DNA from: Catenulispora acidiphila DSM 44928
GTDB lineage: Bacteria > Actinomycetota > Actinomycetes > Streptomycetales > Catenulisporaceae
NCBI RefSeq assembly: GCF_000024025.1
Contig: NC_013131.1
Location: forward strand, 7,440,001-7,504,000
DNA length: 64,000 bases
Reading direction: 5' to 3'
A program made the translations under genes and the position numbers. Numbering within the stretch: position 1 is the stretch's first letter; every line of letters starts with the position of its first letter. The notes below the pieces were generated by a model. The model searched no databases. It was not told the DNA's origin and saw nothing but the letters and a program-made list of their open reading frames with translations. Below, piece after piece: positions 30,116 through 55,168 of this stretch.

Positions 30116-31315
30116 TCAGACTCCGGCGGTCTGGTGCAGCGCGGTGGCGGCCGCGTCTCGTACCGCGTGCCAGGCGATGCGGGAGCGGCGTGCGGCTGCG
30201 GTGCGCAGGGCGGTGGCGACGTCGTCGAAGTCGATGCCGACGTCGCGGAGGTCGGCGAGGGTTTGCTCGGCGTTCTTCAGGTGTGCGCCGTGCAGGGTGT
30301 CGTCGGTGATGGGGTCGGATTCGGCGACGATGCCCATCGTGGCTTCGGTCATCGCGGTGGCGACGCCGGGGGCTACCAGGGTGTCGACGTAGAGAGTCTC
30401 GGAGTAGTAGGGGTCGCGGGCTCGGGTGGCTGACCACAGCAGGAGTGGCGGGCGGGCGCCGGCGGCTGCCAGCGGTTTCCAGCGCTCGGCGCGGAGGGTT
30501 TCTTCGTGGGCTGCGAAGGTGGTGCGGGCCAGGGCCACTGCGGTGCGGCCGCGGAAGGAGGCCGAGCGGTCGGTGGCGATGGCCCAGAGGCGTTTGTCGA
30601 CTTCGGTGTCGGTGTGGCTCAGGGCGAAGCCGATCGCGCCGGGGAGCTTGCTCAGGTCGTGTCCGGCTGCGCGCGCCTTGTCCAGTCCGGCCACGTACGC
30701 CTCGACGGCCGCGCCGTGGGCGGCCGGGTCGGCGACCGGGCCGATCAGGATGCTGATTCCGTCGGCGAGCGCCGCGGTGGCCGCGGTCAGGCCCGCGGGG
30801 GTCGCGGGGATCGTCACCAGGAGGTTGGGGCGGGCGACCGCGGTGGTGAACCGGCGGACGGTCTGGCCGATGTGGTGCGCGGCGGTCTCGGTGTCGGCTT
30901 CGGTATCGGCTTCAGCGTCCGCTCCGGTGTCGGCTGCGGTGCCGGCTTCCGTCTCGGCTCCGGTCTCCGCCGCCGTCCCGTAATCCAGCTCGACCGCGAC
31001 CATGCCGGTCTGTCCGGGCCCGGCGGTGAACGCCGGCAGCACGACGTCGCAGGCTTCTTGGGCGTCGGTGGCGAGCAGGTCCAGGACGATCTCGGCGGGC
31101 TCGTGCCCGGCCAGGCCGGCGATCTGCTCCCGGTAGGCTCCCGCTTTCAGCGCCGGCAGCAGGCCGGCCGCGCCGAGGACCGCGCCGGTGACCGAGCGGC
31201 GCGCGACCAGGGAGGCCAGGCCGCGCTCGCGGATCCGGTCGCGGGCCAAGCCGTCGGCCCAGATGCCGTCGATCCGGGAGGCGAGCTGCCCCAGGCGTCC
31301 GTCCGTCGCGGTCAC
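30116..31315 (-). CDS. transaldolase homologue without the catalytic lysine
   Basis: 399 residues from GTG 31315, overlapping the previous stop (GTGA). Transaldolase text is clear: DGIWADGLARDRI, MVAVELDYG, ARPNLLVTIPATPAG, LSHTDTEVDKRL, ERWKPLAAAGARPPLLLWSA and YSETLYVDTLVAPGVATAM. In active enzymes the Schiff-base lysine sits in 'NLFIKIPAT'; here it is Thr (NLLVTIPAT, codon ACG), and the TTNP asparagine is also lost (VTGAVLGA). An acidic Glu/Asp/Thr/Ala insert of ~30 residues, encoded by 12-bp repeats, follows the VELD strand. It is predicted unable to do transaldol chemistry; a structural or altered role in the polyketide cluster is inferred. Confidence 0.8.
   Translation of the reverse strand: MTATDGRLGQLASRIDGIWADGLARDRIRERGLASLVARRSVTGAVLGAAGLLPALKAGAYREQIAGLAGHEPAEIVLDLLATDAQEACDVVLPAFTAGPGQTGMVAVELDYGTAAETGAETEAGTAADTGADAEADTEADTETAAHHIGQTVRRFTTAVARPNLLVTIPATPAGLTAATAALADGISILIGPVADPAAHGAAVEAYVAGLDKARAAGHDLSKLPGAIGFALSHTDTEVDKRLWAIATDRSASFRGRTAVALARTTFAAHEETLRAERWKPLAAAGARPPLLLWSATRARDPYYSETLYVDTLVAPGVATAMTEATMGIVAESDPITDDTLHGAHLKNAEQTLADLRDVGIDFDDVATALRTAAARRSRIAWHAVRDAAATALHQTAGV
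30884..30975. repeat. 12-bp minisatellite inside the transaldolase homologue
   Basis: About seven imperfect copies of a 12-base unit (GGTGTCGGCTTC on the plus strand), in frame, encoding the acidic Glu/Ala/Asp/Thr insert. The unit keeps the frame, so length variation would not break the gene. Confidence 0.65.
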
Positions 31316-31746
31316 CGGGCCCCCGCTCCGGCTTCGACGCTGCGCCGGACCATCGCCAGGTGCTCCTCGTCGATGCCCCAGGTGAACAGGCGCGCCGGGT
31401 GGATGCGGATCAGCTCGGGGCTGAGGAACTCCAGATCCGGCGGGACCGGCTGGTCCACCAGGGCCTCGGCCAGGCCGCGGATCTCGATGCCGCGCACCCG
31501 CCAGGGCCGCCGGGAGACGATGTCGTCCACGACGAAGGAGGCCTTGCCGTTGGCCCGGACGTTGCGGAACTTCTGGGTGGTGGCCATCGCGCGGCCGCCG
31601 ATGTCGATGGTCTGCAGCTCGGCGTTGTACCAGTAGACGACCGGGTTGTTCTGCAGCGAGCCGTTGTTCTGCATCGTGGCCAGGCGGCCGAGGCGCTGCG
31701 AGGCCAGGTATTCCAGTTCCTCTTCGGTGAAGACGGTGACGCCCAT
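31312..31746 (-). CDS. PPOX-class F420-dependent oxidoreductase 1
   Basis: 144 residues from ATG 31746 behind GGGAGGAAC. MGVTVFTEEELEYLASQRLG and RLATMQNNGSLQNNPVVYWY open the split barrel; IDIGGRAMATTQKFRNVRAN is the cofactor-binding loop (K-F-R-N-V). It closes with RRPWRVRGIEIRGLAEAL and LIRIHPARLFTWGI. Closely related to the 122-residue protein encoded at 35387, sharing Q-x-x-P-V, FRNVR and PWRVR-EIRG-AEAL. Probably an F420 or FMN reductase in tailoring; operon with the transaldolase homologue and DUF6081-like gene. Confidence 0.82.
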   Translation of the reverse strand: MGVTVFTEEELEYLASQRLGRLATMQNNGSLQNNPVVYWYNAELQTIDIGGRAMATTQKFRNVRANGKASFVVDDIVSRRPWRVRGIEIRGLAEALVDQPVPPDLEFLSPELIRIHPARLFTWGIDEEHLAMVRRSVEAGAGAR

Positions 31747-31757
31747 GGCGTTCCTCC

Positions 31758-32603
31758 CTATCCGGTGGTGGCTTGGCGAATGGTGAACTGCTGCACTGCG
31801 AGCCGGACGCCCTGCCCCCACACCTGGTCGGTGAAAACGCCCAGGCCGAAGGAGAACTGAGCGGGCACCGCGATCTGGGCACGGAGCCCGTTGTCACGCT
31901 TGGCGAACCGTGCGGCCTGCTCTCCCGGCAGCCGCAGCCCGAGCTCGTCCACGGCCAGGACCTGCTCGCCGCCGACGGACCAGCGCGCGGTGCCGGCCGG
32001 GGCGTCGTAGAGGATCGCGAGGTCGTGATGGTCGCCGGGCTCGCGATCCAGAACCGGTACGGCGTAAGAGAATCCGGCCCAGTCCGTACCTGGGAACGCC
32101 AGGCGCTCATAGACCGCGAAGACGCAGCGGTCGGTGACGATGAAGTCGAGCACGATCCCGGTCGGCCGGTCCACGCAGATCAGCACGGCCGCGCCGCATT
32201 TGAGCTCGCGGTGCGGGTCCGGCACGGAATCGCCGTACGGATGCCGGTCCAGGCCGAAGCCCTGGGCCGAGATCGTCGCCGACACCTCGGTCCGGCCGGC
32301 CGCGTCCGGCGGCGGGACGTCGGCGAAGGCCGCCCAGCGCAGGTGGTCCATCTCGCCGAGCGGGCCGTCGGTCGGGCTGAAGGCCGGCTCGCCGGTGTCC
32401 GGGTCGGTGTGCGCGGGCACGACCACGAGCCCTGCGGACCCCGTGCTCACGACGCCGTCGCCGTCGGGGAGCCCGGCACCGGCCGGCCGCAGCCGCCAGG
32501 ACCCCGGGGCGAGGGCAGAACCGGCTCGGAAATCGTCCCGGAACACCACGCGCCAGGACGCGGCGATCGGGTCGGCGGCTTCGGCCGCGCTGCTAAAGGC
32601 CAT
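31758..32603 (-). CDS. DUF6081-like protein 1
   Basis: 281 residues from ATG 32603. Beta-rich and lectin/concanavalin-like in feel: VVFRDDFRAGSALAPGSWRL, VVPAHTDPDTGEPAFSPTDG, VLDFIVTDRCVFAVYERLAF, ARWSVGGEQVLAVDELGLRL and a final WGQGVRLAVQQFTI. It is a clear paralogue of the protein encoded at 34519, with the same order HTDP-TGEP-F, D-F-V--RVFAVYERL and GQGVRL. I know this family only as an uncharacterised one seen near aromatic polyketide genes. First gene of the leftward operon, with a SARP-type repeat array 35 bp upstream. Confidence 0.7.
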   Translation of the reverse strand: MAFSSAAEAADPIAASWRVVFRDDFRAGSALAPGSWRLRPAGAGLPDGDGVVSTGSAGLVVVPAHTDPDTGEPAFSPTDGPLGEMDHLRWAAFADVPPPDAAGRTEVSATISAQGFGLDRHPYGDSVPDPHRELKCGAAVLICVDRPTGIVLDFIVTDRCVFAVYERLAFPGTDWAGFSYAVPVLDREPGDHHDLAILYDAPAGTARWSVGGEQVLAVDELGLRLPGEQAARFAKRDNGLRAQIAVPAQFSFGLGVFTDQVWGQGVRLAVQQFTIRQATTG

Positions 32604-32637
32604 GAGACGCACCGTGGACCGCCCGGCTCGCCGTGCG

Positions 32638-32671: not shown

Positions 32672-32700
32672 TCTCGAGCCGTGTTCCAGCCACCTTCCAG
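32672..32700 (+). promoter_or_regulatory. SARP-type heptad repeats for the rightward operon
   Basis: TCTCGAG-CCGT-GTTCCAG-CCAC-CTTCCAG: three heptads at 11-bp period, the spacing of SARP (ActII-ORF4/DnrI-type) sites, 65 bp before the secreted protein's ATG. Confidence 0.7.
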
Positions 32701-32765
32701 ACCGTGCGGGCATCGTCGCCCTGGCCATGCAGACCTTGTTTTCCCCACGACACACGGAGGCATCG

Positions 32766-33452
32766 ATGGGTTCGAGCACTGATACGGACGCCGGGACGAA
32801 ACGGCGCCGCGGCCAGCGCACCGCGGTGGCCGCCCTGGCCGTGGCCACGGCCACCGCGCTCGGCTCGGCCGGCGCCGGCGCGCACTCGGCCCGCACCCCG
32901 GGCTGGGCCGACGCCGCCAAGCCGGGCACGTCCACCGTCGGGACCTCCGCGTACACGTGCTTCGTGACCTACCCCGGCGGCAGCACGAACGTCCAGTACA
33001 GCCTGACGTTCACCGGTCAGGCGCCGGACCAGGTCGGCGCGCACCAGCCCTACGTCGCCGGCGTCACCTTCCCGACGATCACGCCGAACCCGGCCATCAA
33101 CGAGCGCGTCGTGGACGTGACCTTCCGGTTCCGCCTCCCGGCCGGCTCGATCCTGTTGACCTGGAAGCTCAGCGGCGGCTCGGGCGTCACCGACCCGAGC
33201 GTCTCAGTGCTCGGCGACACCGTCACGGTCGAGGCCGACGGCCCGTTCCAGGCCTCGGCCCCCTTCCAGTTCCCGAATCTCAGCCTTCTGCTGCTCTCCG
33301 GCTCGGCCGGCACCGAGTCGCTGCTCCAGGAGGGCTCGAACCTGTCGGAGCCGTCCTTCTCCTGGGAACGCACCGACCTGGACGGAACGCAGCGTCCCTT
33401 CGCCTGCTTCCTGCCCACCGGCACCACGCTGACCAGCACGACAGTCGGCTGA
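32766..33452 (+). CDS. secreted protein of unknown function
   Basis: 228 residues. A twin-arginine-like/Sec signal occupies the start (KRRRGQRTAVAALAVATATA, cleavage near GAHA/GAG-AHS). The mature part is beta-rich: YTCFVTYPGGSTNVQYSLTF, VAGVTFPTITPNPAINERVV, DVTFRFRLPAGSILLTWKLS, ending with RPFACFLPTGTTLTSTTVG and two cysteines that may pair. No catalytic motif was recognised. First gene of the rightward SARP-type promoter; its presence in a polyketide cluster suggests an extracellular or wall role connected to product handling. Confidence 0.65.
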   Translation: MGSSTDTDAGTKRRRGQRTAVAALAVATATALGSAGAGAHSARTPGWADAAKPGTSTVGTSAYTCFVTYPGGSTNVQYSLTFTGQAPDQVGAHQPYVAGVTFPTITPNPAINERVVDVTFRFRLPAGSILLTWKLSGGSGVTDPSVSVLGDTVTVEADGPFQASAPFQFPNLSLLLLSGSAGTESLLQEGSNLSEPSFSWERTDLDGTQRPFACFLPTGTTLTSTTVG

Positions 33453-33491
33453 AACGCCCACGACACCGAACCGGACAAGGAGGTGCGGGCC

Positions 33492-34439
33492 ATGACGGTC
33501 CGGCATGCCGACAAGACGCGGCACGAGATCCTGGTGCTCGGCGCGACCGGGAAACAGGGCGGATCCACCGCCCGGCAGCTGCTCAAGCGGGGGTGGCAGG
33601 TCCGCGCCTTCGTCCGGGATCCGGCCAAGGCGCAAGCGGTGGACCTGGCCGGGCTGGGCGCGACGCTGTACGTCGGCGACCTCGACGACGCCGACAGCAT
33701 CCACCGCGCGATGTACGGGGTCTACGGCGTGTTCAGCGTGCAGACGCCGCTCGGCCCGGCCGGAGTGCCCGGCGAGGAACGGCACGGCAAGCTCGTCGCC
33801 GACATCGCCGCGCACAACGGCGGCGTACGCCACTACGTCCACAGCTCGGTCGGCGGCGCCACGCGGCCCGAGGGTCTGCACTGGCGCGAGGCGAAGCTCC
33901 GGGTCGAGGAACGCGTGCTGGAGCACGGGCTTCCGGCCACGTTCCTTCGTCCGGCGTACTTCATGGAGAACCTGAACACCGACATGTATCCGCCGATCCT
34001 GGAGGACGGCGGGCTGGTCTACCGGCGAGGGCTGGCGGACGGCGTGAAGCTCCAGATGATCGCCGCGGCCGACATCGGCGTGTTCGCCGCGCAGGTCTTC
34101 GACGAAGGGCCCGAAGACGCCGTCGGGCACCATCTGGAGCTGGCCGGCGACGAGCTGACCGGCGCGGAGATCGCCGAGGCCTTCGCCCGGCACACCGGAC
34201 TGAGCGCCCGGTACGAGGCCATCGCGCCGGACGACCTGGTCAACCAGAGCCACTGGCAGGTCGAGGCATACGGCTGGCTCAACCGCATCGGATACAGCGC
34301 GGACATCCCGGCGCTGCGCGAGCGGTTCCCGGAGCTGTCGACGCTGGACAGCTGGCTTGCCCGGACCGCCTGGAAGCCCGGCGCCCCGGCCGCTGCCCCA
34401 GCCGCTGCCCCGGCTGCCGCCTCCAGCCCGCAAGCCTGA
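33492..34439 (+). CDS. NmrA-like NAD(P)-binding protein
   Basis: 315 residues from ATG 33492 with ribosome site AAGGAGGTG. Atypical SDR: EILVLGATGKQGGSTARQLL (G-x-x-G-x-x-G), RAFVRDPAKAQ (Arg for NADP), YVHSSVGGATRPEGLHWREA with the catalytic Tyr-x-x-x-Lys missing, and FLRPAYFMENLNTDMYPPIL. That is the NmrA/isoflavone reductase-like pattern. It may reduce a quinone or enol intermediate or act as a redox sensor. The tail is an Ala/Pro run (PGAPAAAPAAAPAAA). Likely the second gene of the rightward operon. Confidence 0.8.
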   Translation: MTVRHADKTRHEILVLGATGKQGGSTARQLLKRGWQVRAFVRDPAKAQAVDLAGLGATLYVGDLDDADSIHRAMYGVYGVFSVQTPLGPAGVPGEERHGKLVADIAAHNGGVRHYVHSSVGGATRPEGLHWREAKLRVEERVLEHGLPATFLRPAYFMENLNTDMYPPILEDGGLVYRRGLADGVKLQMIAAADIGVFAAQVFDEGPEDAVGHHLELAGDELTGAEIAEAFARHTGLSARYEAIAPDDLVNQSHWQVEAYGWLNRIGYSADIPALRERFPELSTLDSWLARTAWKPGAPAAAPAAAPAAASSPQA

Positions 34440-34518: not shown

Positions 34519-35340
34519 ATGTCCCAGCACGATCCGACCGGGCTGGAGGCGGCGCGGACCGCTTCACCGGTGTTCCACGACGACTTCCACAAAGGCTTCG
34601 CCGCCGCGGGTCCCGGCGCGCTCTGGCAGGTCCGGCCGGCTGCCGGTCTGCCCGCCGGCGACGGAGCCGTTCTCGTCTCCCCCCTCGGGCTGCACGTCGC
34701 GCCGCCGCACACCGATCCGGCGACCGGCGAGCCCCGGTTCGCCGACGCCGGGGACCAGCCGGTGCACGTGCGCTGGGCGGCGTTGGCGGCGCGCACCTCG
34801 AAGGCGGACTTCCCCGGTTTCGACGCCGTCCCGGGCACCTGGCTGGTGCTGGAGACCCAGATGTCGGTGACGCCCTTCGGCCTGGAGCGGATCGGCGCGG
34901 CCGCCGACGACCCCGCGGTCGCCGCCGCCGCGCTGATCACCACGGACCGGGAGACCGGCATGGTGTTCGACTTCATGGTCACCGGCGGCCGGGTGTTCGC
35001 CGTCTACGAACGCCTCGGCGCCCCGGACGCGCCGCACGCGGCGTTCACCTACACGGTTCCGGTCGCCGTCACCCAGCCGGGGCGCTCCCATACCTGTGTC
35101 GTCGCCTACGACGCGAGCGCCGGCACCGTAAGGTGGATCCTGAACGGAAGCAATGTACTGACAGTCGACCGCATCGGCGAACGGATGCCGGACGACAGCG
35201 CCCTGACCCGCGACAACGGCCGGCCGGCCGCGGTGTGCACCCCGCGTCAGCTGGCCGTGGGGCTGGGGATGTTCGCCGAGAAGTCGCTGGGGCAGGGCGT
35301 GCGCCTCGTGGTGCGCCGGGTGACGGTGCGGCGGGGCTGA
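34519..35340 (+). CDS. DUF6081-like protein 2
   Basis: 273 residues, paralogue of the protein encoded at 31758. VFHDDFHKGFAAAGPGALWQ, VAPPHTDPATGEPRFADAGD, MVFDFMVTGGRVFAVYERLG, VRWILNGSNVLTVDRIGERM and LGMFAEKSLGQGVRLVVRRV align segment by segment. The two copies sit on opposite sides of the divergent promoter, each beside a PPOX gene, so a DUF6081-PPOX pair was duplicated and inverted. Function unknown; retained twice in one cluster, suggesting two related but distinct substrates. Confidence 0.7.
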   Translation: MSQHDPTGLEAARTASPVFHDDFHKGFAAAGPGALWQVRPAAGLPAGDGAVLVSPLGLHVAPPHTDPATGEPRFADAGDQPVHVRWAALAARTSKADFPGFDAVPGTWLVLETQMSVTPFGLERIGAAADDPAVAAAALITTDRETGMVFDFMVTGGRVFAVYERLGAPDAPHAAFTYTVPVAVTQPGRSHTCVVAYDASAGTVRWILNGSNVLTVDRIGERMPDDSALTRDNGRPAAVCTPRQLAVGLGMFAEKSLGQGVRLVVRRVTVRRG

Positions 35341-35386: not shown

Positions 35387-35755
35387 ATGCCGGACACCGA
35401 GCCTTTCACCGAGAGCCAGCTGGCCTACCTCGCGACCCAGCGGCTGGGCCGGTTGGCCACCATCCGCCCGGACGGCTCGCCGCAGAACAGCCCGGTCGGC
35501 TTCCGGGTCAACACCCGGCTGGGCACGATCGACATCGGCGGCATGAACATGACCGCCAGCAAGAAGTTCCGCAACGTGCGCCTCAACGACCGGGTGTCGC
35601 TGGTGATCGACGACATCGCCTCGGCCAACCCCTGGCGGGTGCGCGCCTGCGAGATCCGGGGCCGCGCCGAGGCGCTGGAGGACCCGGAGTTCCCGGCGAT
35701 CGGCGGCCCGATCATCCGGATCCACCCCACGCGGATCGTCAGCTGGGGTCTGTGA
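35387..35755 (+). CDS. PPOX-class F420-dependent oxidoreductase 2
   Basis: 122 residues. TESQLAYLATQRLGRLATIR, PDGSPQNSPVGFRVNTRLGT, IDIGGMNMTASKKFRNVRLN, ANPWRVRACEIRGRAEALED and IIRIHPTRIVSWGL. Same family as the 31312 protein but ~20 residues shorter at the C-terminus. 46 bp behind the second DUF6081-like gene, forming the second DUF6081-PPOX pair. Cofactor F420 or FMN is predicted from the KKFRNVR loop. Confidence 0.82.
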   Translation: MPDTEPFTESQLAYLATQRLGRLATIRPDGSPQNSPVGFRVNTRLGTIDIGGMNMTASKKFRNVRLNDRVSLVIDDIASANPWRVRACEIRGRAEALEDPEFPAIGGPIIRIHPTRIVSWGL

Positions 35756-35874: not shown

Positions 35875-35903
35875 GTTCGAGCCCGGCTCCAGCCCGGGCC
35901 CGG
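35875..35903 (+). promoter_or_regulatory. SARP-type heptad repeats for the minimal PKS operon
   Basis: GTTCGAG-CCCG-GCTCCAG-CCCG-GGCCCGG at 11-bp period, ending ~60 bp before the KS-alpha ATG. Same pattern as the other arrays in the cluster. Confidence 0.7.
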
Positions 35904-35912
35904 ATCCTGAAG

Positions 35913-35961: not shown

Positions 35962-37227
35962 ATGACACGACGAGCCGTCATCACCGGAATCGGGGTGCGC
36001 GCGCCGGGCAGTCCCGGCGTGAAGGAGTTCTGGGATCTCCTGTCCGGCGGGCGTACCGCCACCCGGCGCATCACCTTCTTCGACCCCGCGCCCTACCGGT
36101 CCCAGGTGGCCGGGGAGTGCGACTTCGACCCGGCCGCCGAAGGGCTCAGCCCGCGGCAGGTACGGCGTCTGGACCGGGCCGCGCAATTGGCCGTGGTCTG
36201 CGCCGAGGCGGCGTTGCAGGACAGCGGCTTGGACCGTGCGGACCTCGTCCCCGAGCGCACCGGCGTGGTCCTGGGCAGCGCGGTCGGCGCGGCCAGCAGT
36301 CTGGAACGCGAGTACCTGGTGCTCTCGGACAGCGGCCGCAGCTGGGTCCCGGATCTGGGGCACCTGACGCCGCACATGGCCGACTACCTGACGCCCAGCG
36401 CGATGGCCGCCGAGACGGCCTGGACGGTCGGCGCCGAGGGCCCGGCGCTGCTGGTCTCCGACGGCTGCACCTCGGGCCTGGACTCGGTCGGGCACGCCGC
36501 CGACCTGATCGCCGAGGGGACCTGCGAGGTGGTGATCACCGGCGCGGCCGACGCCCCGGTCTCGCCGATCGTCGTGGCCTGCTTCGACGCGATCCGGGCC
36601 ACCACCTCGCGCAACGGCGAGCCGGACACCGCCAGCCGGCCGTTCGACCGCACCCGTGACGGCTTCGTACTGGCCGAGGGCGCGGCGGTGTTCGTGCTGG
36701 AGGAGTACGAACACGCCCGGGCCCGCGGCGCGACCGTCTACGGCGAGATCGCCGGCTTCGCGACCCGCTGCAACGCCTACCACATGACCGGTCTGCGGCC
36801 CGACGGCCGGGAGATGGCCGAGGCGATCCGGCAGGCGCTGGCCGAGGCCCGGACCGGGGGCGGCGAGATCGACTACATCAACGCGCACGGCTCGGGCACC
36901 AAGCAGAACGACCGCCACGAGACCGCGGCGTTCAAGCGGAGTCTGGGCGAGCACGCCTACGCCACCCCGGTCAGCTCCATCAAGTCGATGATCGGGCACT
37001 CCCTGGGCGCGATCGGCTCGCTGGAGATCGCCGCCTCGCTGCTGGCGATGCGGCACGACCTGGTACCGCCGACGGCGAACCTGCACGAGGCCGACCCCGA
37101 GTGCGACCTGGACTACGTGCCGGTCGTGGCGCGGGAGCGGCGACTGGACACGGTGCTGTCGGTGGGCAGCGGCTTCGGCGGGTTCCAGAGCGCGATGGTG
37201 CTCAAGAGCGTGCCCGAGGCGGCGTGA
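35962..37227 (+). CDS. type II PKS ketosynthase, KS-alpha
   Basis: 421 residues. Claisen condensing subunit of the minimal PKS, working with the chain length factor and ACP to build a poly-beta-ketone from malonyl units. Active-site Cys169 in [15 protein letters not shown], His309 in [12 protein letters not shown] and His346 in [13 protein letters not shown]; the Lys of SSIKSMIG is also present. Start [16 protein letters not shown] is canonical. Translationally coupled to the next gene by TGATG. A SARP-type array and a palindrome lie upstream. Confidence 0.97.
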
Positions 37228-40021: not shown

Positions 40022-40039
40022 TGTCGAGCGCCGTTCCAG
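40022..40039 (+). promoter_or_regulatory. SARP-type heptad repeats before the monooxygenase gene
   Basis: TGTCGAG-CGCC-GTTCCAG, two heptads at 11-bp period, 62 bp before the GTG at 40102. Confidence 0.6.
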
Positions 40040-40101
40040 CACCGGGCGCGAGGCTGGTTCACCAAGAACCCGGCTCCGCCAAGACCTGCAAGGAGTGCGA
40101 C

Positions 40102-44667: not shown

Positions 44668-44692
44668 CTTCGAGCCGGTCTCCAGGCACCGC
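44668..44692 (+). promoter_or_regulatory. SARP-type heptad repeats before the SnoaL-like gene
   Basis: CTTCGAG-CCGG-TCTCCAG-GCAC at 11-bp period, 49 bp before the ATG at 44735. Confidence 0.65.
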
Positions 44693-44734
44693 GGGCACGG
44701 TGGACCCGGCCCACTGGACCCGGCACGGGAGGGA

Positions 44735-46820: not shown

Positions 46821-48713
46821 TCAGTCCGCCGTGTTCTGCGTGCCCGAATACTGCTGCCATTCGTTGGCCGACTGGCCGGGGACGGCTTTGCCGTCGGCGC
46901 CGGTTCCAGTGCCGGTTCCAGCTCCGGCTCCGGCGTTCTCGCCGTCCGCGCCGTCCCCGCCGCCCTGGCCGCCCCAGCCCGCGCCGCCGTCGCCGTCGTC
47001 TTGGCCGCCCCAGTCCTGGTTGGCCCAGTCACCCTGCTGCGCGGCCTTCATCGGCAGGGCGAATCCGAGGACGAACGCCGCGGCGAGCAGCCCGACGACC
47101 GTCCAGATCGTCTCCTGCACCGCCGAGCTGAAGCCCGCCTTGGCGGCCTTGACCGCGGTGGTGCCGACGGCCTGGCCGACCTCCGGGCCGTGCTCGGCGG
47201 AGGCCTTGCCGACCGCGGTGTTCAGGACGGCGCAGGAGGCCGGGACGGCGGCCGGGTCGCTGGCCGTGGCCCGGTCCTGCTCGCAGGTGTGCAGGTTCGC
47301 CAGGATCGTGTCCTGGTCCGCGGAGCTGACCCCGGCCACGCTCAGCTGCGTGCGCAGGGCCGGCGCGTGGCTGTCCACGGCTGAGGCGACGTGGCCGCCG
47401 AGCACCCCGAAGAACACCGTGCCGACCACCGCGATGCCGAGCGCCCCGGCGAACTGCTGCACCGCGTTCAGCGTGCCGGAGGCCGAGCCGTACTCGCCGG
47501 CCTCCACCCCGGCCAGCACGATGTCGAAGAACGGCGCCAGGAACATGCCCAGGCCGATGCCGGTGAACAGCAGCGAGGGGATCAGGTCGTAGGGGGTCAG
47601 GCCGGTCCCGGCGTAGTGGATCGTCAGGAACGTGCCGATCACCCCGGCGGTCATGCTCACCAGGCCCAGGTGCAGCATGCGCCGCCCGAGCTTGGCGGCC
47701 AGGCCCGCGCCGGCCGCGATGAACCCGACGACGCTGCCGACGGCCTGCGGCAAAGTGGTCAGACCGGCCTTCAGCGGGGAGTAGCCCAGACCGATCTGCA
47801 CGAAGACGGTGAACACCAGCGAGAAGCCGACGATCGCGGTGAAGAAGGCCAGGCCGGTGAACAGGCCGCCGGTGAAGGCCCGTTTGCGGAACAGCGTGGG
47901 CACCACCAGCGGGTCGCCGCCGCGGTTGTGGATGCGGGTCTCCACCCAGCCGAAGATCCCGAAGACCACCACCGAGGCGGCGATCATCACGAAGGTCCAG
48001 GCCGGCCAGCCCAGCGAGCGGCCCTGCACCACCGGGTAGACCACGAGCAGCGCCGCGCTCGAGGCCAGCACGGTGCCGAGCAGGTCCAGTTTGATCGGGG
48101 CGCGCTCGTCGCGGTCCGACGGCAGGTACTTGATCGCGCCGACGAGCGCCACCAGGCCCAGCGGCAGGTTGATCAGGAAGATCATGCGCCAGCTGCTGCC
48201 GAACAGGTTGGCGTCGATCAGGGTGCCGGCGATCACCGGGCCGAGCACGGTGGAGAAGCCCATCGCCGGCCCGTAGGCGCCGAAGGCCTTGGCCAGCTCC
48301 TGCGGCGGGAAAACCGCCTTGATCACGCCCAGGCCCTGGGGCAGCATCACCGCGCCGAACAGGCCCTGCGCCACCCGGCAGCCGATCAGCATGCCCGGGG
48401 AGAAGGAGCTCGCGCACAGCACCGAGGCCACGGTGAAGCCGATGACGCCGACGATGAAGACCGGTTTGCGGCCGTAGATGTCGCCGAGCCGGCCGCCGGT
48501 GATCAGGCCGGCGGCCATGGCCAGCGTGTAGCCGGCACCGAGCCACTGGATCAGCGCCGGCCCGCCGCCGATGTCGGCCCGGATGGTGGGACCGGCGATG
48601 TTGGTGACCAGCGAGTCGAGCAGGTCCATCACCGAGGCCAGCAGGACGACGGCGAAGGCCGCCCAGCGCCAGCGGTAGGGGGGACCGGCCGTGGCCGGGT
48701 TGTTCCACGTCAT
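46821..48713 (-). CDS. MFS exporter of the polyketide cluster (DHA2, with Gly/Asp-rich tail)
   Basis: 630 residues, about 14 transmembrane spans. FAVVLLASVMDLLDSLVTNI opens span 1, and GGRLGDIYGRKPVFIVGVIG is motif A. A large loop with two Cys (NLHTCEQDRATASDP... PASCAVL) lies between the last spans, as in many antibiotic efflux DHA2 proteins. The extra C-terminal ~70 residues are hydrophilic and Gly/Asp/Gln-rich (WGGQDDGDGGAGWGGQGGGD), unusual for the family. Divergent from a TetR gene, the ActII-ORF1/ORF2 arrangement: repressor and self-resistance pump. Confidence 0.92.
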   Translation of the reverse strand: MTWNNPATAGPPYRWRWAAFAVVLLASVMDLLDSLVTNIAGPTIRADIGGGPALIQWLGAGYTLAMAAGLITGGRLGDIYGRKPVFIVGVIGFTVASVLCASSFSPGMLIGCRVAQGLFGAVMLPQGLGVIKAVFPPQELAKAFGAYGPAMGFSTVLGPVIAGTLIDANLFGSSWRMIFLINLPLGLVALVGAIKYLPSDRDERAPIKLDLLGTVLASSAALLVVYPVVQGRSLGWPAWTFVMIAASVVVFGIFGWVETRIHNRGGDPLVVPTLFRKRAFTGGLFTGLAFFTAIVGFSLVFTVFVQIGLGYSPLKAGLTTLPQAVGSVVGFIAAGAGLAAKLGRRMLHLGLVSMTAGVIGTFLTIHYAGTGLTPYDLIPSLLFTGIGLGMFLAPFFDIVLAGVEAGEYGSASGTLNAVQQFAGALGIAVVGTVFFGVLGGHVASAVDSHAPALRTQLSVAGVSSADQDTILANLHTCEQDRATASDPAAVPASCAVLNTAVGKASAEHGPEVGQAVGTTAVKAAKAGFSSAVQETIWTVVGLLAAAFVLGFALPMKAAQQGDWANQDWGGQDDGDGGAGWGGQGGGDGADGENAGAGAGTGTGTGADGKAVPGQSANEWQQYSGTQNTAD

Positions 48714-48826: not shown

Positions 48827-48907
48827 GATTCCCATTCGACTAGCGATCGCTGTTCGTGTCAAGTAGGCTGCAGCGTGAGATCGCCCGAACGGTGTGAGGA
48901 GCGCCCA

Positions 48908-49648
48908 GTGACCACAAGCGACGGCGTCGACCTGCCCGCACCGCCGTGGCGCCCCGCCCGGGGCCCGCGGCGGCCCGTCCGTCAGCGCCTGCCGCTGTCC
49001 AAGGACCTGATCGTCGCCACCGCGCTGCGCATCGCGGTCGCCGAAGGCCTGGACGCCGTCACCGTGCGGCGCGTCGGCGAGGAGTTGGAGACCGGCTCGG
49101 CCAGCTTGTACACGCACATCTCCGGCAAAGACGAGCTGTTCGAGCTGGTGCTGGACGCGGCCACCGCGGACGTCACGGTCCCGGCGCCGGAGACCGGGCG
49201 CTGGATGGAGCAGGTGCACGAGGTCGCCTGGCAGATCTACCGGGTGCTCACGGCGCACAACGACGTGGCGCGGGTCTCGCTGGGGGTGATCCCCACCGGG
49301 CCGAACATGCTGCGGATCGCCGAAGGGCTGCTGGACATCATGATCAGCGGCGGGGTGCCGGTGCAGACCGCCGCGTGGACCATCGACAGGCTGCTGCTGT
49401 ACATCGCTTCGGACGCGTATCAGAGTGCGCTGTTTCTGGCTCACCGGAAGCCGGAGCAGAGCATTCCGGAGTATGCGGTGCAGTTCCTGAGCGATATTCG
49501 GGAGTTCTACGCTTCGCTGCCGGCCGATCGGTTCCCCCATACGAGCGGGAATGCCGAGACGCTCACCACGGGCGGCGGGGATGAGCGGTTCGAGTACGGG
49601 TTGAGTTTGCTGTTGGACGGGTTGGCGGCTCGGTTGCCTGGGGCTTAA
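48908..49648 (+). CDS. TetR-family regulator of the exporter
   Basis: 246 residues from GTG 48908 (GTGAGGAGCG upstream). The helix-turn-helix begins after a Pro/Arg-rich leader: LPLSKDLIVATALRIAVAEG, LDAVTVRRVGEELETGSASL and YTHISGKDELFELVLDAATA, followed by a TetR_C ligand domain (YRVLTAHNDVARVSLGVIPT, MLRIAEGLLDIMISGGVPVQ). Same size and context as ActII-ORF1-type repressors that sense the product or a late intermediate and release the exporter promoter. Confidence 0.88.
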   Translation: MTTSDGVDLPAPPWRPARGPRRPVRQRLPLSKDLIVATALRIAVAEGLDAVTVRRVGEELETGSASLYTHISGKDELFELVLDAATADVTVPAPETGRWMEQVHEVAWQIYRVLTAHNDVARVSLGVIPTGPNMLRIAEGLLDIMISGGVPVQTAAWTIDRLLLYIASDAYQSALFLAHRKPEQSIPEYAVQFLSDIREFYASLPADRFPHTSGNAETLTTGGGDERFEYGLSLLLDGLAARLPGA

Positions 49649-49669: not shown

Positions 49670-50629
49670 TCATGCGTGGCAGGGCGGCATGCCTCCGTGG
49701 TACTCGGCCATCTCGCCGAAGATGCGGGGGACGTCCAGCGGAGTGCCTTCGGGGGCTCCGTCGAGTTCTGCGTAGACGCGCGCGAGGTTGCCGACGAGGC
49801 GTTCGGTTTCGCGGAGGTCGGCGAAGCGGCCGAGGTCGGTGGTGCGGGCCAGGGCCAACGGGTCCAGTTCGCGTTCGCGGCCGCTCTTCGCCAGGTCTTG
49901 GAGCCAGTGGAGGTATTCCTCGGCGACGTCGAACAGTTCGGGACCGCCTACCGGGCCGTGGCCGGGGACGACTGTTTCGGCGCCCAGGGCGCGGAGGCGG
50001 TCGATCGCGCGCAGGGATCCCGTGACGGAGCCCATCAGGCAGAAGGGGGTCGCGCCGCCGAGGACCACGTCGCCGACGAAGAGGATGCCGTCGTCGGGGA
50101 GGTGGACGACGGAGTCGTCGGGGGTGTGGGCCGGTCCTACGTGCAGGACTTCTATGGTGCGGGTGTCGTCGGTGCGGGTGTCGTCGTCGCCGAAGCGGTA
50201 GGCGTCGCGGTAGGTGGTGGTCGGGAGCGTGAGTTCGATGTCGCCCCAGTCGGCGCGCGGCCATACCGCCAGCAGGGCCAGGCCCAGCTCGGCCATGGCC
50301 GTGGCGGTGCGTTCGTGGGCGATGATCGTGGCTTCGGGGGCGAAGGCGGCGTTGCCGAAGGTGTGGTCGCCGTGGTGGTGGGTGTTGACGACGGCGAGGG
50401 CGGGGCCTTCTTCGGTCGTTCGCGTGGCTGCGGCTTCGGCGGCCCGGTCGACGATCTCGCGGAGGCGGCGGGAGCGGCGTTCGGTGGCCATGGTGTCGAC
50501 GACGACGGTGCGGGCCGGGCCGGTGATCACGCCGGCGTTGCTCAGGCACCAGCCGCCGTCGTACTGGACGACGGCGAGGACCCCGTCACCGATCTCGGCG
50601 ACCTCGGGTTCGGCGAAGCCGGTGTTCAC
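49670..50629 (-). CDS. metallo-beta-lactamase-fold protein, possible ActIV-like cyclase
   Basis: 319 residues from GTG 50629, overlapping the carboxylase stop (GTGA). Zinc-binding motif [20 protein letters not shown] (H-x-H-x-D-H), [20 protein letters not shown] and VGDVVLGG (Asp), [12 protein letters not shown] (His). ActIV-type second-ring cyclase/thioesterases of actinorhodin-like pathways have this fold and length. Encoded in the malonyl-supply operon of a type II cluster, it is a good candidate for cyclisation and release from ACP, but a hydrolase of other thioesters or lactones fits equally. Confidence 0.75.
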
Positions 50630-52482
50630 AGCGTCTCCTCGATGCGGCAGACCGGTTCCCCGGCGGCGATGACGTCGCCCGGGACCACGGCGAGCTTGGT
50701 GATCACGCCGTCGCGGTGGGCGGGCAGCGGCTGCTCCATCTTCATCGCCTCCATGACCACGACGGTCTCGCCCGCCCGGACGGTTTGGCCCTCGATGACC
50801 CGCAGCGCGACGACCGTGCCGGTCATCGGGGCGACGAGTTCTTCGCCGGCTGCCGGGGCGATGCCGCGGGGACGGGAAATGCGGCGGGCGCGCTGGGTAG
50901 CCGGGACGGCTTCGGCGGGGGTCAGGCCGATCGGGAGGGTCATTTCCAGCCGTTTGCCGGCGACTTCGACGACGACTGTGGTGCGCTCGCCGGCGCCCAC
51001 GACCTCGCCGGGGGTGCCGGCGTAGGGCGGGATCGTGTTGTCGAATTCGGTCTCGATCCAGCGGGTGTGGACGTGGAACGGGCCCTCTTCCGGCGTGAAC
51101 GCCGGGTCGTCCATCACCGCGACGTGGAACGTCAGCGCGGTGGGCATCCCGTCGATCTCAAACTCGGCCAGAGCGCGGCGGGCACGCTCCACAGCCTGCT
51201 GCCGATCGCGGCCGGAGATGATCAGCTTCGCCAGCAGCGAGTCGAAGTTCTGTCCGATCTCCGCACCCTGCTCGATCCCGGAGTCCAGACGCACGCCCGG
51301 ACCCGACGGCGGACGCCATGTGGTCACCACACCGGGGGCGGGCAGGAAGTTCCGACCCGGGTCCTCACCATTGATCCGGAACTCGAAGGAGTGCCCACGA
51401 ACCTCCGGATCGCCGTAGCCCAGCTCCTCGCCATCAGCGATCCGGAACATCTCCCGCACCAGGTCGAGACCGGTGACTTCCTCGGTGACCGGGTGCTCCA
51501 CCTGCAAACGGGTGTTCACCTCCAAGAAGGAGATGGTGCCGTCCTGACCGACCAGGAACTCGCAGGTCCCGGCCCCGACGTACCCGGCTTCCTTCAAGAT
51601 CGCCTTGGACGCCCGGTACAGCTCAGCAGTCTGCTCCTCGCTCAAATACGGCGCGGGAGCCTCCTCCACCAGCTTCTGGTGCCGGCGCTGCAACGAGCAG
51701 TCACGCGTGGAGACCACGACCACGTTGCCGTGCTTGTCAGCCAGGCACTGCGTCTCCACATGCCGCGGCCGGTCCAGGTAGCGCTCCACGAAGCACTCGC
51801 CGCGACCGAAGGCACTGACCGCCTCACGCACCGCCGAGTCGAACAGCTCCGGAATCTCCTCCAGCGTGCGCGCCACCTTCAACCCACGCCCACCGCCACC
51901 GAACGCCGCCTTGATCGCCACCGGCAGCCCGTGCTCCTTGGCGAACGCCACCACCTCGTCGGACCCGCTCACCGGATCGGCCGTACCGGCCACCAGCGGC
52001 GCCCCGACACGCTGCGCGATATGCCGCGCCGAAACCTTGTCACCCAACGAACTGATCGCCGCCGCCGACGGACCGATCCACGTCAGACCGGCGTCCACCA
52101 CCGCCTGCGCGAACTCGGCGTTCTCCGAAAGAAATCCATACCCGGGATGCACCGCGTCCGCCCCGGAATCAACCGCGGCCTTCACCAACTTCCCGATCAC
52201 CAGATACGACTCGGCAGGCGTGGACCCGCCCAACGCCCAAGCCTCATCAGCCACCCGCACATGCAACGCGTCCCGATCCGGCTCGGCATACACCGCCACC
52301 GAACCCATACCCGCATCCCGACACGCCCGAGCCACCCGGACCGCGATCTCACCCCGATTGGCGATCAGCACCTTGCGGATACCCGGCCGCGACAACTCGC
52401 CCGCCGACCGCGGATCCCCGCCGACACCTCGCTCAGTCAGATCGCCCCGCGCCGCACGCGCCCCACCCGCGCCCCGCCTCAC
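50626..52482 (-). CDS. accA: acyl-CoA carboxylase alpha subunit (biotin carboxylase + BCCP)
   Basis: 618 residues if started at GTG 52482, which overlaps the epsilon subunit stop (GTGA); the conserved part begins at [20 protein letters not shown] near 52380, so TTG 52395 is possible. ATP-grasp biotin carboxylase: [57 protein letters not shown]. Then the biotinyl domain with the carboxylated-biotin lysine in [20 protein letters not shown]. With the beta and epsilon subunits it makes malonyl-CoA for the PKS. Confidence 0.93.
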
Positions 52483-52718
52483 CGACCGGCCCCCGGCCAC
52501 GGCCCGCCGCCGACCCCGGTCCACGCCGCCGCCGGCAGATGCCGTCCGCGCGCGTGGGTGATCCGCCGCCGCGAGTGCCAGTGCGGGCGGGTCGTGCGCG
52601 ACACCGGCCGCACAACTGTCCGCGCGGTCGCGGCCAGGCTCAGCAGTACCGTGACCGCCGCCGCCAGTTCCTCTGGGGTGGGGTTGCCGCGCAGTACGGT
52701 GAAGTGTCCCCCGGGCAT
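52479..52718 (-). CDS. accE: acyl-CoA carboxylase epsilon subunit
   Basis: 79 residues from ATG 52718 behind AAGGAGGCAGCG. Small epsilon subunit of actinobacterial acyl-CoA carboxylases: [20 protein letters not shown] is the conserved 'V-x-R-G-x-P-x-x-E-E-L-A-A' helix, and the C-terminus ends in a Trp-rich piece ([20 protein letters not shown]). It stabilises the alpha-beta complex. Order beta-epsilon-alpha with overlapping stops is the usual one. Confidence 0.9.
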
Positions 52719-52750: not shown

Positions 52751-54340
52751 TCACATCGGCGGGTTGCCGTGTTTGCGGACGGGGTTGGGTTCGTACTTGC
52801 CGCGGAGCATGGCCAGGGCTTCGATCAGGATCGGGCGGGTGTCCGAGGGGTCGATGACGTCGTCCACGAGGCCGTGTTCGGCGGCGTAGTCGGGGTGCGT
52901 CAACTGGCGGCGGTACTCCGTCATACGTTGGGTGCGGACGGCTTCGGGGTCGGCGGCGGCTGCTATCTCGCGGCGGAAGAGGACGTCGGCTGCCGCCTGG
53001 GCGCCCATCACCGCGATCTCGTTGACCGGCCAGGCGTAGGAGAGGTCGGCGCCGATGGAGCGGGAGTCCATCACGATGTAGGCGCCGCCGTAGGCCTTGC
53101 GGAGGACCACCTGGACGCGGGGGACTGTGGCGTCGCAGTACGCGTACAGGAGCTTCGCGCCGTGGCGGATGATGCCGTCGCGTTCCTGGTCGGTGCCGGG
53201 GAGGAACCCGGGGACGTCCACCAGCGAGACGATCGGGAGGTGGAAGGCGTCGCAGAGTTGGACGAAGCGGGCCGCCTTCTGGGCGGCGGCGATGTCCAGG
53301 GCGCCGGCCAGGACCGCGGCCTGGTTGGCCAGGACGCCGACCGGGTGGCCGTCCAGCCGCGCCAGGGCGCACACCACGTTCGGCGCCCAGCTTTCGTGGA
53401 CCTCCAGGTAGTCGCCGTCGTCGAAGACCTCGCCGAGGACCGCGCGCACGTCGTACACCCGGTTCAGCTCCGCGGGCACCAGGTCCAGCAGCGCCTCGCA
53501 GCGGCGGTCGGGGGTGTCCGCCGGCGGCGTCCAGGGCGGTGCGGTGTGGTTGTTGTCGGGCAGGAACGCCAGCAGCGTGCGGACCGCCTCGAAGCACTCG
53601 CGCTCGTCGTCGTGCACGAAGGCCGCCACGCCGGAGGTCCTCGCGTGGACGTCGGCGCCGCCCAGATCCTCGTGCGTGACCTGCTCGCCGGTCACCGCGC
53701 GGACCACGTCCGGGCCGGTGACGTACATCTGCCCGGCGCCGCGGACCATGAACACGAAGTCGCACAGGGCCGGGGCGTACGCCGCGCCGCCGGCGCACGG
53801 GCCCAGGACCACACTGATCTGCGGGATCACGCCGGAGCCGCGCACGTGCCGGGAGAAGATGCCGCCATAGCCGGCCAGCGCGACCACGCCCTCCTGGATG
53901 CGCGCCCCGGCGCCGTCGCACAGGGCGATCAGCGGCGCGCCGGTCGCCAGCGCCAGGTCCATCACCTTGTGGATCTTCGCGGCGTGGGCCTCGCCGAGGG
54001 AGCCGCCGAAGACCCGGAAGTCGTGCGCGTAGTAGAACACCCGGCGTCCGTCGACCGCGCCCCAGCCGGCGACCACGCCGTCGCCGTACGGGCGCTTGGC
54101 CTCCAGCCCGAAGCCCGAGGCGCGGTGTCGGCGCAGGGTCTCCACCTCGACGCAGGACCCTTCGTCGAACAGCGCCGCCAGGCGTTCCTCGACCGTGAGT
54201 TTGCCGCGGGAGTGCTGGATGCCGGGTTCGGCGCGCGCCGCCAGGATCTCGGCGCGGGTGCGGCGGTGCTCCCTGGCGCGGGCACGCATGTCCGCCGCCG
54301 CAGGGGCGGAGCCGGCGCGGGTTTGGGCCGAGGTCTGCAT
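52751..54340 (-). CDS. accB: acyl-CoA carboxylase beta subunit (carboxyltransferase)
   Basis: 529 residues. Two crotonase-like domains of the carboxyltransferase: N-domain [41 protein letters not shown]-domain [20 protein letters not shown] and [20 protein letters not shown]. The residue after GGAY is Ile; in Streptomyces enzymes Ile here goes with acetyl-CoA acceptance and Asp with propionyl-CoA only, so malonyl-CoA formation is expected. First gene of the accB-accE-accA-MBL operon, with a SARP-type array just upstream of its ATG. Confidence 0.93.
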
Positions 54341-54363
54341 GCCCGAAAGCGTCGCGCCCGGCC

Positions 54364-54381
54364 CTGGAGACCCGCTTGAGA
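54364..54381 (-). promoter_or_regulatory. SARP-type heptad repeats before the carboxylase operon
   Basis: On the minus strand TCTCAAG-CGGG-TCTCCAG, two heptads at 11-bp period, 23 bp before the accB ATG, implying a very short or leaderless transcript. Confidence 0.55.
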
Positions 54382-54409
54382 ACGGACCGGGGCCGGGCGC
54401 GGACGCCGG

Positions 54410-55168
54410 TCAGGAGGCCAGGATCGCCTGGTGGACCTCGCGGACCTCGGCGCCGGGCTCCAGACCGAGTTCGTCGATCAGCACGCTGCGCAGATCCTGG
54501 TAGGCGCGCAGGGCCTCGACCCGGCGGCCGGACTGGGACAGGGCCCGCATGTACTGGGCGTGGAAGGACTCGTTGAACGGGTGCCGCCGGGTCAGCGAGA
54601 CCAGCTCGCCGATGACCTGGTCGACCCGTCCGACCTGGAGGTCCGCCTCGATGCGCAGGCCCATCGCCTGCAGCCGCGCCTCCTCCAGACGGCGGGTCTC
54701 GGCCTGGAGCGCCGGGCCGGGCACGATGCCGCCGAAGGCGTTGCCGGACCACAGTTCCAGCGCGCCGCGCCACATGCGGCCGGCCTCGGCGAAGCGCCGT
54801 TGGACCATGGCCTCCCTGGCGGCGGAGCTCAGGGTGTCGAAGCGGAACAGGTCGCTGTCACCCGCCGCGCAGCTGAGACGGTAGCCGTCGGCGTGCGTGG
54901 CCAGTTGGCAGGAGGCGACTTCGCGCAGGCTCATCCCCGAAACCTGCGCGAACACCTTGCGGATGTGAAGGATGTACGTCTGCAGCGTCGTCCGCGCGCT
55001 GCGCGGCGGACGACCGTCCCAGATCTCGTTCATCAGGGCCTCGCCGGTGACGACCCGGCCGGCATTCAGTGCCAGCAACGCCAGCACGGTGCGCGGTTTG
55101 GCCCCCGCGGGCACCACTGTTTCGCCGTTGACAATGACGTCGAAGGCTCCGAGCATGCGAACACGCAT
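54410..55168 (-). CDS. SARP-family pathway activator
   Basis: 252 residues. N-terminal OmpR-type winged helix (MRVRMLGAFDVIVNGETVVP, KPRTVLALLALNAGRVVTGE, LMNEIWDGRPPRSARTTLQT and YILHIRKVF) followed by the bacterial transcriptional activation domain (FRFDTLSSAAREAMVQRRFA, to FNESFHAQYMRALSQSGRRV and EALRAYQDLRSVLIDELGLE). Same size class as ActII-ORF4 and RedD. These activators bind 11-bp-spaced heptads next to -10 boxes; seven such arrays occur at this cluster's promoters. Predicted pathway-specific switch. Confidence 0.93.
   Translation of the reverse strand: MRVRMLGAFDVIVNGETVVPAGAKPRTVLALLALNAGRVVTGEALMNEIWDGRPPRSARTTLQTYILHIRKVFAQVSGMSLREVASCQLATHADGYRLSCAAGDSDLFRFDTLSSAAREAMVQRRFAEAGRMWRGALELWSGNAFGGIVPGPALQAETRRLEEARLQAMGLRIEADLQVGRVDQVIGELVSLTRRHPFNESFHAQYMRALSQSGRRVEALRAYQDLRSVLIDELGLEPGAEVREVHQAILAS

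What the first reader, a model, noticed from the sequence alone, without database searches (positions are those of the whole stretch)
30116..55168. SARP regulon readable from sequence: seven phased heptad arrays delimit a type II polyketide cluster
Seen directly: arrays of 7-bp boxes (consensus about NTTCGAG, then NYTCCAG) repeated every 11 bp at 32638-32666 (minus), 32672-32700, 35875-35903, 40022-40039, 44583-44611 (minus), 44668-44692 and 54364-54381 (minus). Each lies 23-69 bp before the first gene of an operon. Known: SARP proteins of the ActII-ORF4/DnrI class bind 11-bp-spaced heptads. Inference: the SARP encoded at 54410 switches on all these operons, so the transaldolase homologue, the PPOX and DUF6081-like genes, the secreted protein and the carboxylase operon all belong to the pathway. 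The exporter and MBL-independent genes without arrays would follow other control.
Basis: partly seen in the sequence, partly recalled or inferred. Interest (0 to 1): 0.75.

Follow-up and report, generated by a model that had tools for sequence, protein, structure and literature searches.

The report
SARP-controlled dimeric-quinone antibiotic gene cluster
Seven short repeat arrays in this actinomycete DNA look like the on-switches that one regulator gene uses to turn on an actinorhodin-like antibiotic pathway; the switch design is a textbook one, but it is unusually clean here and shows which genes probably belong to the pathway.

Summary
In detail: all seven 11-bp-phased arrays exist, and all 9 window sites within one mismatch of YTCGAG-N5-YTCCAG lie in them. 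Boxes plus -10 occur 7 times in the 10.47-Mb genome, all in this cluster, at six promoters; boxes alone are less specific (3 of 8 exact sites). In 27 related clusters, arrays chosen by boxes only show the hexamer at +10 in 110 of 233 cases, 0-13 at other offsets: the published SARP promoter layout. Of 28 aligned SARP-type domains in this genome only the cluster's has the recognition helix common in those clusters. Gene content resembles actinorhodin/naphthocyclinone clusters and suggests a dimeric benzoisochromanequinone. The regulon is supported in silico: a clean new member of a known kind. Extras: complete acyl-CoA carboxylase, duplicated DUF6081-PPOX pair, a transaldolase relative lacking its Schiff-base lysine, two predicted leaderless operons. 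Binding, expression and product are untested.

The parts
54410..55168 (-). small SARP activator (OmpR-type DNA-binding domain + BTAD, 252 aa)
   Evidence: Pfam BTAD 2e-46 and Trans_reg_C 5.9e-9; AfsR structure 8hvr 9.3e-33; helix TTLQTYILHIRK unique among 28 aligned domains of the genome
32638..32666 (-). SARP array 1: CTCGAG/CTCCAC/TTCGAG (+ degenerate GGCGAG at 32627-32632), before the DUF6081b-PPOX-TAL operon
32611..32616 (-). -10-like CACGGT, 10 nt after the degenerate fourth box, 7 nt before ATG 32603 (predicted leaderless)
32672..32700 (+). SARP array 2: CTCGAG/TTCCAG/TTCCAG, before the secreted protein-NmrA-DUF6081a-PPOX operon
32711..32716 (+). -10-like CATCGT
35875..35892 (+). SARP array 3: TTCGAG/CTCCAG, before KSalpha-KSbeta-ACP-ARO/CYC
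35903..35908 (+). -10-like GATCCT
40022..40039 (+). SARP array 4: GTCGAG/TTCCAG, before HsaA-like monooxygenase-ABM
40050..40055 (+). -10-like GAGGCT
44583..44611 (-). SARP array 5: CTCGAT/CTCCAG/TTCCAG, before the SDR1-SDR2-LLM operon
44567..44572 (-). -10-like GAGGCT
44668..44685 (+). SARP array 6: TTCGAG/CTCCAG, before SnoaL-flavin reductase
44696..44701 (+). -10-like CACGGT
54364..54381 (-). SARP array 7: CTCAAG/CTCCAG, before the carboxylase operon
54348..54353 (-). -10-like GACGCT, 7 nt before ATG 54340 (predicted leaderless)
30116..31315 (-). transaldolase-family protein lacking the Schiff-base lysine (T in NLLVTIPAT)
   Evidence: Pfam TAL_FSA 3.9e-17; alignments
31312..31746 (-). PPOX-type protein 2
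   Evidence: Pfam PNPOx_N 1.5e-6
31758..32603 (-). DUF6081 protein b
   Evidence: Pfam 3.8e-82
32766..33452 (+). putative secreted protein; ActVI-3/NcnG-like is my inference from weak homology and position
   Evidence: translation; no Pfam family over its cut-off; weak homologues in 11 of 27 related clusters
33483..34439 (+). NmrA-family reductase, ActVA-4/NcnM-like (dimerisation)
   Evidence: Pfam NmrA 6e-50
34519..35340 (+). DUF6081 protein a, ActVA-3/NcnN-like oxidase (dimerisation)
   Evidence: Pfam 7.8e-71
35387..35755 (+). PPOX-type protein 1, NcnK-like
   Evidence: Pfam PNPOx_N 2.6e-12
35962..37227 (+). ketosynthase alpha
37224..38540 (+). ketosynthase beta / chain-length factor
38573..38881 (+). 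acyl carrier protein
   Evidence: Pfam PP-binding 2.7e-10
38623..39870 (+). open frame of the di-domain aromatase/cyclase (true start about 38.9 kb)
   Evidence: Pfam Polyketide_cyc2, two stretches
40102..41265 (+). flavin monooxygenase, ActVA-5/NcnH-like
41262..41588 (+). ABM monooxygenase, ActVA-6-like by order
41965..42975 (-). luciferase-like oxidoreductase, Gra-29/NcnO-like
43019..43744 (-). SDR, 3-ketoreductase (Gra-6/NcnP) type by homology
43762..44538 (-). SDR, 9-ketoreductase
44735..45205 (+). SnoaL-like, ActVI-A-like
45214..45708 (+). flavin reductase, ActVB/NcnT-like
49670..50629 (-). MBL-fold second-ring cyclase, ActIV/NcnE-like, last gene of carboxylase operon
50626..52524 (-). 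biotin carboxylase/BCCP alpha subunit (open frame; true start near or after 52479)
52479..52718 (-). acyl-CoA carboxylase epsilon subunit
   Evidence: Pfam ACC_epsilon 1.8e-13
52751..54340 (-). carboxyltransferase beta subunit, NcnS-like
   Evidence: Pfam 3e-179
45866..46783 (-). ADH, enoyl reductase type, no array
46821..48713 (-). MFS exporter, no array
48875..49648 (+). TetR regulator divergent from the exporter, no array

Best explanation
The arrays are operators of one pathway-specific small SARP (54410-55168). SARP protomers bind side by side on 11-bp direct repeats of YTCSAG that overlap the -35 region, and recruit RNA polymerase to a poor -10 (mostly SANNNT) that starts 10 nt after the last box. 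Seven such promoters drive seven operons of an actinorhodin/naphthocyclinone-type (dimeric benzoisochromanequinone) type II polyketide cluster: minimal PKS; ketoreductases and LLM oxidoreductase; SnoaL and flavin reductase; quinone-forming monooxygenases; the NmrA/DUF6081/PPOX dimerisation set; a second DUF6081/PPOX pair with a transaldolase relative; and a complete acyl-CoA carboxylase with the MBL cyclase. The MFS-ADH operon carries no array and probably answers to the divergent TetR. Shown: arrays, phase, confinement, conservation, gene content. Inferred: binding, activation, product, TetR control.
For: Arrays and -10 register. Whole-genome composite pattern 7 of 7 in the cluster at six promoters, control 3; at 1 mismatch 51 sites against 58 in the control, so the 44 others are at chance level. 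Boxes at least 11/12 plus -10: 7 hits (six promoters) in the cluster, 0 in eight other 20-kb stretches of this genome, which hold eight other BTAD-type genes, another type II PKS locus and the window's two flanks, and 0 in the rest of the window. Test in 27 related clusters, arrays chosen by boxes only: 110 of 233 have NANNNT at +10, other offsets 0-13; after collapsing similar promoters 44 of 133 against at most 7; reversed-motif control 0 of 71. ATG 6-8 nt after the hexamer in 22 of 110 such promoters against 3 of 123 arrays without it. SARP assignment. Gene content against relatives and the ncn table. Published rule and afsS -10 CACTGT.
Against: The composite pattern was derived from these arrays, so only its absence elsewhere and the relatives are independent tests. 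Boxes alone: 5 of 8 exact genome sites are elsewhere. The first array needs a degenerate fourth box; at that laxer threshold (10/12) two hits appear outside the cluster in the eight stretches. 123 of 233 box arrays in relatives lack the -10 (some are opposite-strand readings or inside genes). Two of 27 related clusters (G323, G113) have a SARP with the same helix type but no array of this kind, and two (G052, G026) showed arrays but no SARP hit in the stretch fetched. An apparently structural gene (ADH) has no array. Many relatives are close to each other, which the collapsed count only partly corrects. No expression or binding data.
Confidence: 0.88

Rival explanations
1. The arrays are real SARP operators but are read by, or shared with, another SARP of the genome, or by an AfsR-like global regulator.
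For: 33 BTAD-domain matches in the genome, two of them only about 14 and 20 kb away (7509391, 7514656).
Against: None of the other 27 aligned domains has the TTLQTY..H/Q helix; 19 of 27 have R at the position of AfsR R92 and none H or Q (my count; AfsR contacts). No array of this kind at 11/12 plus -10 in eight 20-kb stretches that hold eight other BTAD-type genes.
Confidence: 0.08
2. The arrays are chance or sequence-bias repeats (TCGAG and CCAG are common in GC-rich DNA) noticed because the reader looked for them.
For: At 2 mismatches the count in the window is not above shuffles; some exact box pairs lie in coding DNA elsewhere.
Against: Placement before seven operon starts, fixed -10 register, confinement and conservation.
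Confidence: 0.01
3. The regulon is right but the cluster makes a monomeric pyranonaphthoquinone (granaticin/medermycin type) rather than a dimer; the DUF6081 proteins act as Aln6-like C-C cleaving or other oxidases.
For: LLM and Gra-6-type SDR are shared with clusters that I take as granaticin-like (G392, G394, G395), which also have DUF6081 but no NmrA hit; Aln6 is related to NcnN and does another reaction.
Against: NmrA (58-62% identity), PPOX and ABM occur together in 5 of 27 clusters, four act-like and one (G284) that resembles ncn, and all three are here.
Confidence: 0.35

Closest known systems
Actinorhodin (act) cluster and its SARP ActII-ORF4
   Different: Here an SDR2/LLM pair of granaticin type, an extra DUF6081/PPOX pair, a transaldolase relative, carboxylase alpha and epsilon; different operon order
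Naphthocyclinone (ncn) cluster of Streptomyces arenae (PMC10697411, Table 1, section 15 read)
   Same: PPOX (ncnK), NmrA (ncnM), DUF6081 (ncnN), LLM (ncnO), two SDRs (ncnP, ncnQ), carboxylase beta (ncnS), flavin reductase, TetR, SARP
   Different: The ncn set has no ADH-type enoyl reductase, and its table lists no carboxylase alpha/epsilon and no transaldolase; it has a methyl- and an acyltransferase, not seen among the ORFs I scanned here
AfsR at the afsS promoter (cryo-EM, PMC10936776, passages and section 7)
   Same: 11-bp direct repeats overlapping -35, poor -10 CACTGT, homologous SARP domain
   Different: Box sequence differs (CGTT(T/C)ATCGNN in PMC10972967, against YTCSAG); R92 of the recognition helix is H or Q in 26 of 27 SARPs of this class

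Membership tests
SARP regulators (small) | OmpR-type DNA-binding domain followed by BTAD, no further domain | tested here: met
   Trans_reg_C 36.3 bits (cut-off 26.2), BTAD 158.4 bits, 252 aa; AfsR structures matched over residues 3-250, EmbR over 5-250
SARP regulators (small) | Targets with direct repeats every 11 or 22 bp, last repeat 8 bp from the -10 | tested here: met
   rule quoted in PMC10936776. The link of these targets to this SARP is inferred
SARP regulators (small) | Activates transcription by binding those repeats | not testable with these tools
   needs gel shift, footprint or transcript data
Benzoisochromanequinone type II PKS clusters | Minimal PKS + 9-KR + di-domain ARO/CYC + MBL (ActIV-type) cyclase | tested here: met
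   PKMiner lists one Ben cluster for Catenulispora acidiphila DSM 44928, genome 10,467,782 bp
Benzoisochromanequinone type II PKS clusters | 3-ketoreductase and two-component monooxygenase for pyran/quinone formation | tested here: met
   SDR2 57-62% identical to its counterpart in six LLM-bearing relatives; HsaA-like and flavin reductase present. By homology only
Dimeric BIQ clusters (act, ncn) | NmrA (ActVA-4) and DUF6081 (ActVA-3) dimerisation pair | tested here: met
Dimeric BIQ clusters (act, ncn) | Dimeric product | not testable with these tools
   needs chemistry
Transaldolases | Schiff-base lysine in the IKIPAT-type motif | tested here: not met
   threonine in its place against solved transaldolases and the best-scoring own-genome paralogue, which keep lysine; that this lysine is the Schiff-base one is recalled

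The most novel reading that the evidence does not exclude
The SARP regulon includes a second, divergently transcribed module (DUF6081b, PPOX2 and a lysine-less transaldolase relative with no match at E 1e-64 or better in 390 other genomes of the order and no hit in the 27 related clusters) that adds an uncharacterised oxidation or C-C bond step to a dimeric benzoisochromanequinone, so the cluster would make a dimer with new tailoring and the transaldolase fold would have been recruited to another chemistry.
Probability: 0.3. Interest if true: 0.6.

Novelty: new member of a known kind. Interest (0 to 1): 0.42.

Why it matters
The mechanism is textbook, but boxes plus a fixed -10 give a promoter rule read from one window and borne out in 25 of 27 other clusters, which marks SARP targets by sequence, including operon heads and predicted transcription starts. 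It ties otherwise anonymous genes (DUF6081b, PPOX2, the transaldolase relative, the carboxylase) to the pathway and says which gene (the SARP) to overexpress to wake it.

Tried and rejected
Boxes alone as a genome-wide regulon test: too weak (8 exact sites, 3 in the cluster; with 2 mismatches 2978 sites against 2453 in the control).

Avoidance of T at the first -10 position: considered and dropped, because T is about as rare in that context in the background (2.5%) as in the promoters (5 of 110).

Array for the exporter/TetR, the ADH and the SARP gene itself: looked for down to 9 of 12 box letters plus -10; no site in those intergenic stretches.

Transaldolase relative as an ordinary sugar enzyme: thought unlikely because the catalytic lysine and the TNP motif are replaced. 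A first attempt at that alignment (end) picked wrong frames and was redone. A first regular expression for own-genome SARP helices was too narrow and was replaced by a profile alignment, in which 28 of the 30 loci held (of 33 matches) gave an aligned domain.

A scan of genome contigs with KSbeta returned 5 loci at 59-63%; the nine other genomes of the genus gave at best 54-55%. No close orthologue of the whole cluster was found in these searches.

Leaderless SARP promoters: one paper search (listing only); PMC8780764 and others hold both words and were not read for this, so no claim of novelty is made.

Full report
Observation. The seven arrays are present at the stated coordinates. In the 64-kb window 9 of 9 sites that match YTCGAG-N5-YTCCAG with at most one mismatch lie in the arrays. 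The looser YTCSAG pair with one mismatch gives 14 sites, 10 of them in arrays, against a shuffle mean of 5.0 and a largest of 13 in 100 shuffles. At two mismatches the excess is gone (29 against 21.7 +/- 5.7).

Aligning the seven promoters on their last box shows a NANNNT hexamer that starts exactly 10 nt after YTCCAG in six of seven: CATCGT, GATCCT, GAGGCT, GAGGCT, CACGGT, GACGCT. In the seventh (DUF6081b operon) CACGGT lies one 11-bp turn further, 10 nt after a degenerate fourth box GGCGAG. If the heptad is written TCSAGNN this is a spacing of 8 bp, the rule quoted for SARP promoters in PMC10936776 (passages); the afsS -10 in that paper is CACTGT, the same kind of poor hexamer.

Whole-genome test. 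The genome is one contig of 10,467,782 bases, the size that PKMiner gives for Catenulispora acidiphila DSM 44928 (PMC3462128, Table 4, passage); the identity of the strain is my inference from that number. Exact YTCGAGN5YTCCAG occurs 8 times (control 3), 3 in the cluster; the other 5 overlap long open frames of coding-like composition. Boxes plus -10 (TCNAGN6TCCAGN11ANNNT) occur 7 times, all in the cluster, at six promoters (one hit is a nested pair of array 2); the reversed control pattern gives 3. At one mismatch the total is 51 against 58 in the control, so the 44 sites elsewhere are at chance level. The pattern was derived here, so the in-cluster count is by construction and the informative result is its absence elsewhere. 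I also scanned eight further 20-kb stretches of this genome, which hold eight other BTAD-type genes, another type II PKS locus and the window's two flanks: no site with at least 11 of 12 box letters plus -10, against 7 hits at six promoters in the cluster; at 10 of 12 the cluster has 8 (array 1 joins) and the stretches 2.

Test in relatives. KSbeta searches gave related clusters. In 27 clusters (26 from adjacent stretches, one from a short contig), 233 arrays were picked by boxes only. NANNNT starts at +10 in 110 of them; every other offset from 0 to 30 has 0-13, about 4 being expected. After collapsing similar promoters 44 of 133 remain at +10 against at most 7 elsewhere; the reversed motif gives 71 arrays and 0 at +10. 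25 of 27 clusters have at least one such promoter; G323 and G113 have none. They lie within 300 bp before KSalpha in 19 of 27 clusters, SDR1 in 14 of 25, SnoaL in 8 of 24, MBL in 7 of 20 and DUF6081a in 5 of 19 that have the gene. The first hexamer base is G or C in 94 of 110 and the consensus T in 5, which is no more than background. An ATG begins 6-8 nt after the hexamer in 22 of 110 of these promoters against 3 of 123 arrays without it (nine of the 22 come from the four act-like genomes, so they are not all independent). This supports the hexamers as -10 elements and suggests leaderless mRNAs. In the window the carboxylase (ATG 54340) and DUF6081b (ATG 32603) starts lie 7 nt after their hexamers.

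Which regulator. The 252-aa protein at 54410-55168 is a small SARP. Its recognition helix, TTLQTYILHIRK, resembles that of 27 SARP hits from 25 of the related clusters: TTLQTY in 24 of 27 and H or Q at the AfsR R92 position in 26 of 27 (my count). In this genome 28 of the 30 fetched BTAD-type loci (of 33 matches) gave an aligned domain; only the cluster SARP has that helix, and of the other 27, 19 have R and none H or Q at that position (my count). AfsR R92 contacts a base of its box (PMC10936776 section 7), so the change fits a different box; that link is inference. No array with -10, down to 9 of 12 letters, precedes the SARP gene, the TetR gene or the MFS-ADH operon.

What the cluster is. 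Families: KSalpha, KSbeta, ACP, ARO/CYC, two SDRs, LLM oxidoreductase, MBL cyclase, SnoaL, flavin reductase, HsaA-like monooxygenase, ABM, NmrA, DUF6081 twice (46% identical), PPOX twice (55% identical), a putative secreted protein, ADH, MFS, TetR, and an acyl-CoA carboxylase with beta, epsilon and alpha subunits. In the naphthocyclinone gene table (PMC10697411 section 15) PPOX, NmrA, DUF6081, LLM, both SDRs, carboxylase beta and flavin reductase have counterparts. That paper reports loss of naphthocyclinone on ncnN inactivation and about 8% of actinorhodin left on actVA-3 deletion (passages), both being DUF6081-type oxidases placed in dimerisation. The most likely product is therefore a dimeric benzoisochromanequinone; a monomeric one is not excluded. 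PKMiner already predicted one benzoisochromanequinone cluster in this species (column order read from a flattened table), so the cluster itself is not new.

Odd genes in the regulon. The transaldolase relative has threonine where the lysine of the family's IKIPAT-type motif sits, and has lost the TNP motif; the best-scoring own-genome paralogue keeps both, and a third paralogue at 3741290 has glycine at the lysine position. None of 390 other genomes of the order has a match at E 1e-64 or better, and none of the 27 related clusters has a hit. With DUF6081b and PPOX2 it forms a divergent operon with an array of its own. Its role is open.

Verdict. It is a clean new example of a known regulatory design; the additions are the phased -10, its confirmation in relatives, the regulator's matching helix, the complete carboxylase and the altered transaldolase relative. 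That such SARPs may act across related clusters is in line with PMC8588249, where ActII-ORF4 alone of five tested SARPs woke a griseusin cluster of another strain (passages).

Noticed in passing
30116-31315 (-): Transaldolase-family protein with the motif lysine replaced by threonine and the TNP motif lost; a third family member at genome 3741290-3742252 has glycine at that position.
   Followed up: partly
52479-52718 (-): Small acyl-CoA carboxylase epsilon subunit between carboxyltransferase and biotin carboxylase, so the cluster carries a complete carboxylase.
   Followed up: yes
31312-32603 (-) and 34519-35755 (+): Duplicated DUF6081-PPOX pair (46% and 55% identical) in the operons of the divergent arrays 1 and 2, whose first boxes are two palindromic CTCGAG sites at 32660-32665 and 32673-32678.
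   Followed up: partly
   Followed up: no
G323 (L142-L143) and G113 (L144-L145): Related clusters with the same SARP helix type but no YTCSAG array with -10; they may use another box.
   Followed up: no
genome 7509391 and 7514656: Two more SARP-type genes about 14 and 20 kb beyond the SARP; no array of this kind at 10 of 12 letters plus -10 in that 20-kb stretch.
   Followed up: partly
26789-27289 (+) and 56027-57850 (-): Ricin-type beta-trefoil lectin-domain protein left of the cluster and a GH18 glycosyl hydrolase with a carbohydrate-binding module right of it.
   Followed up: no
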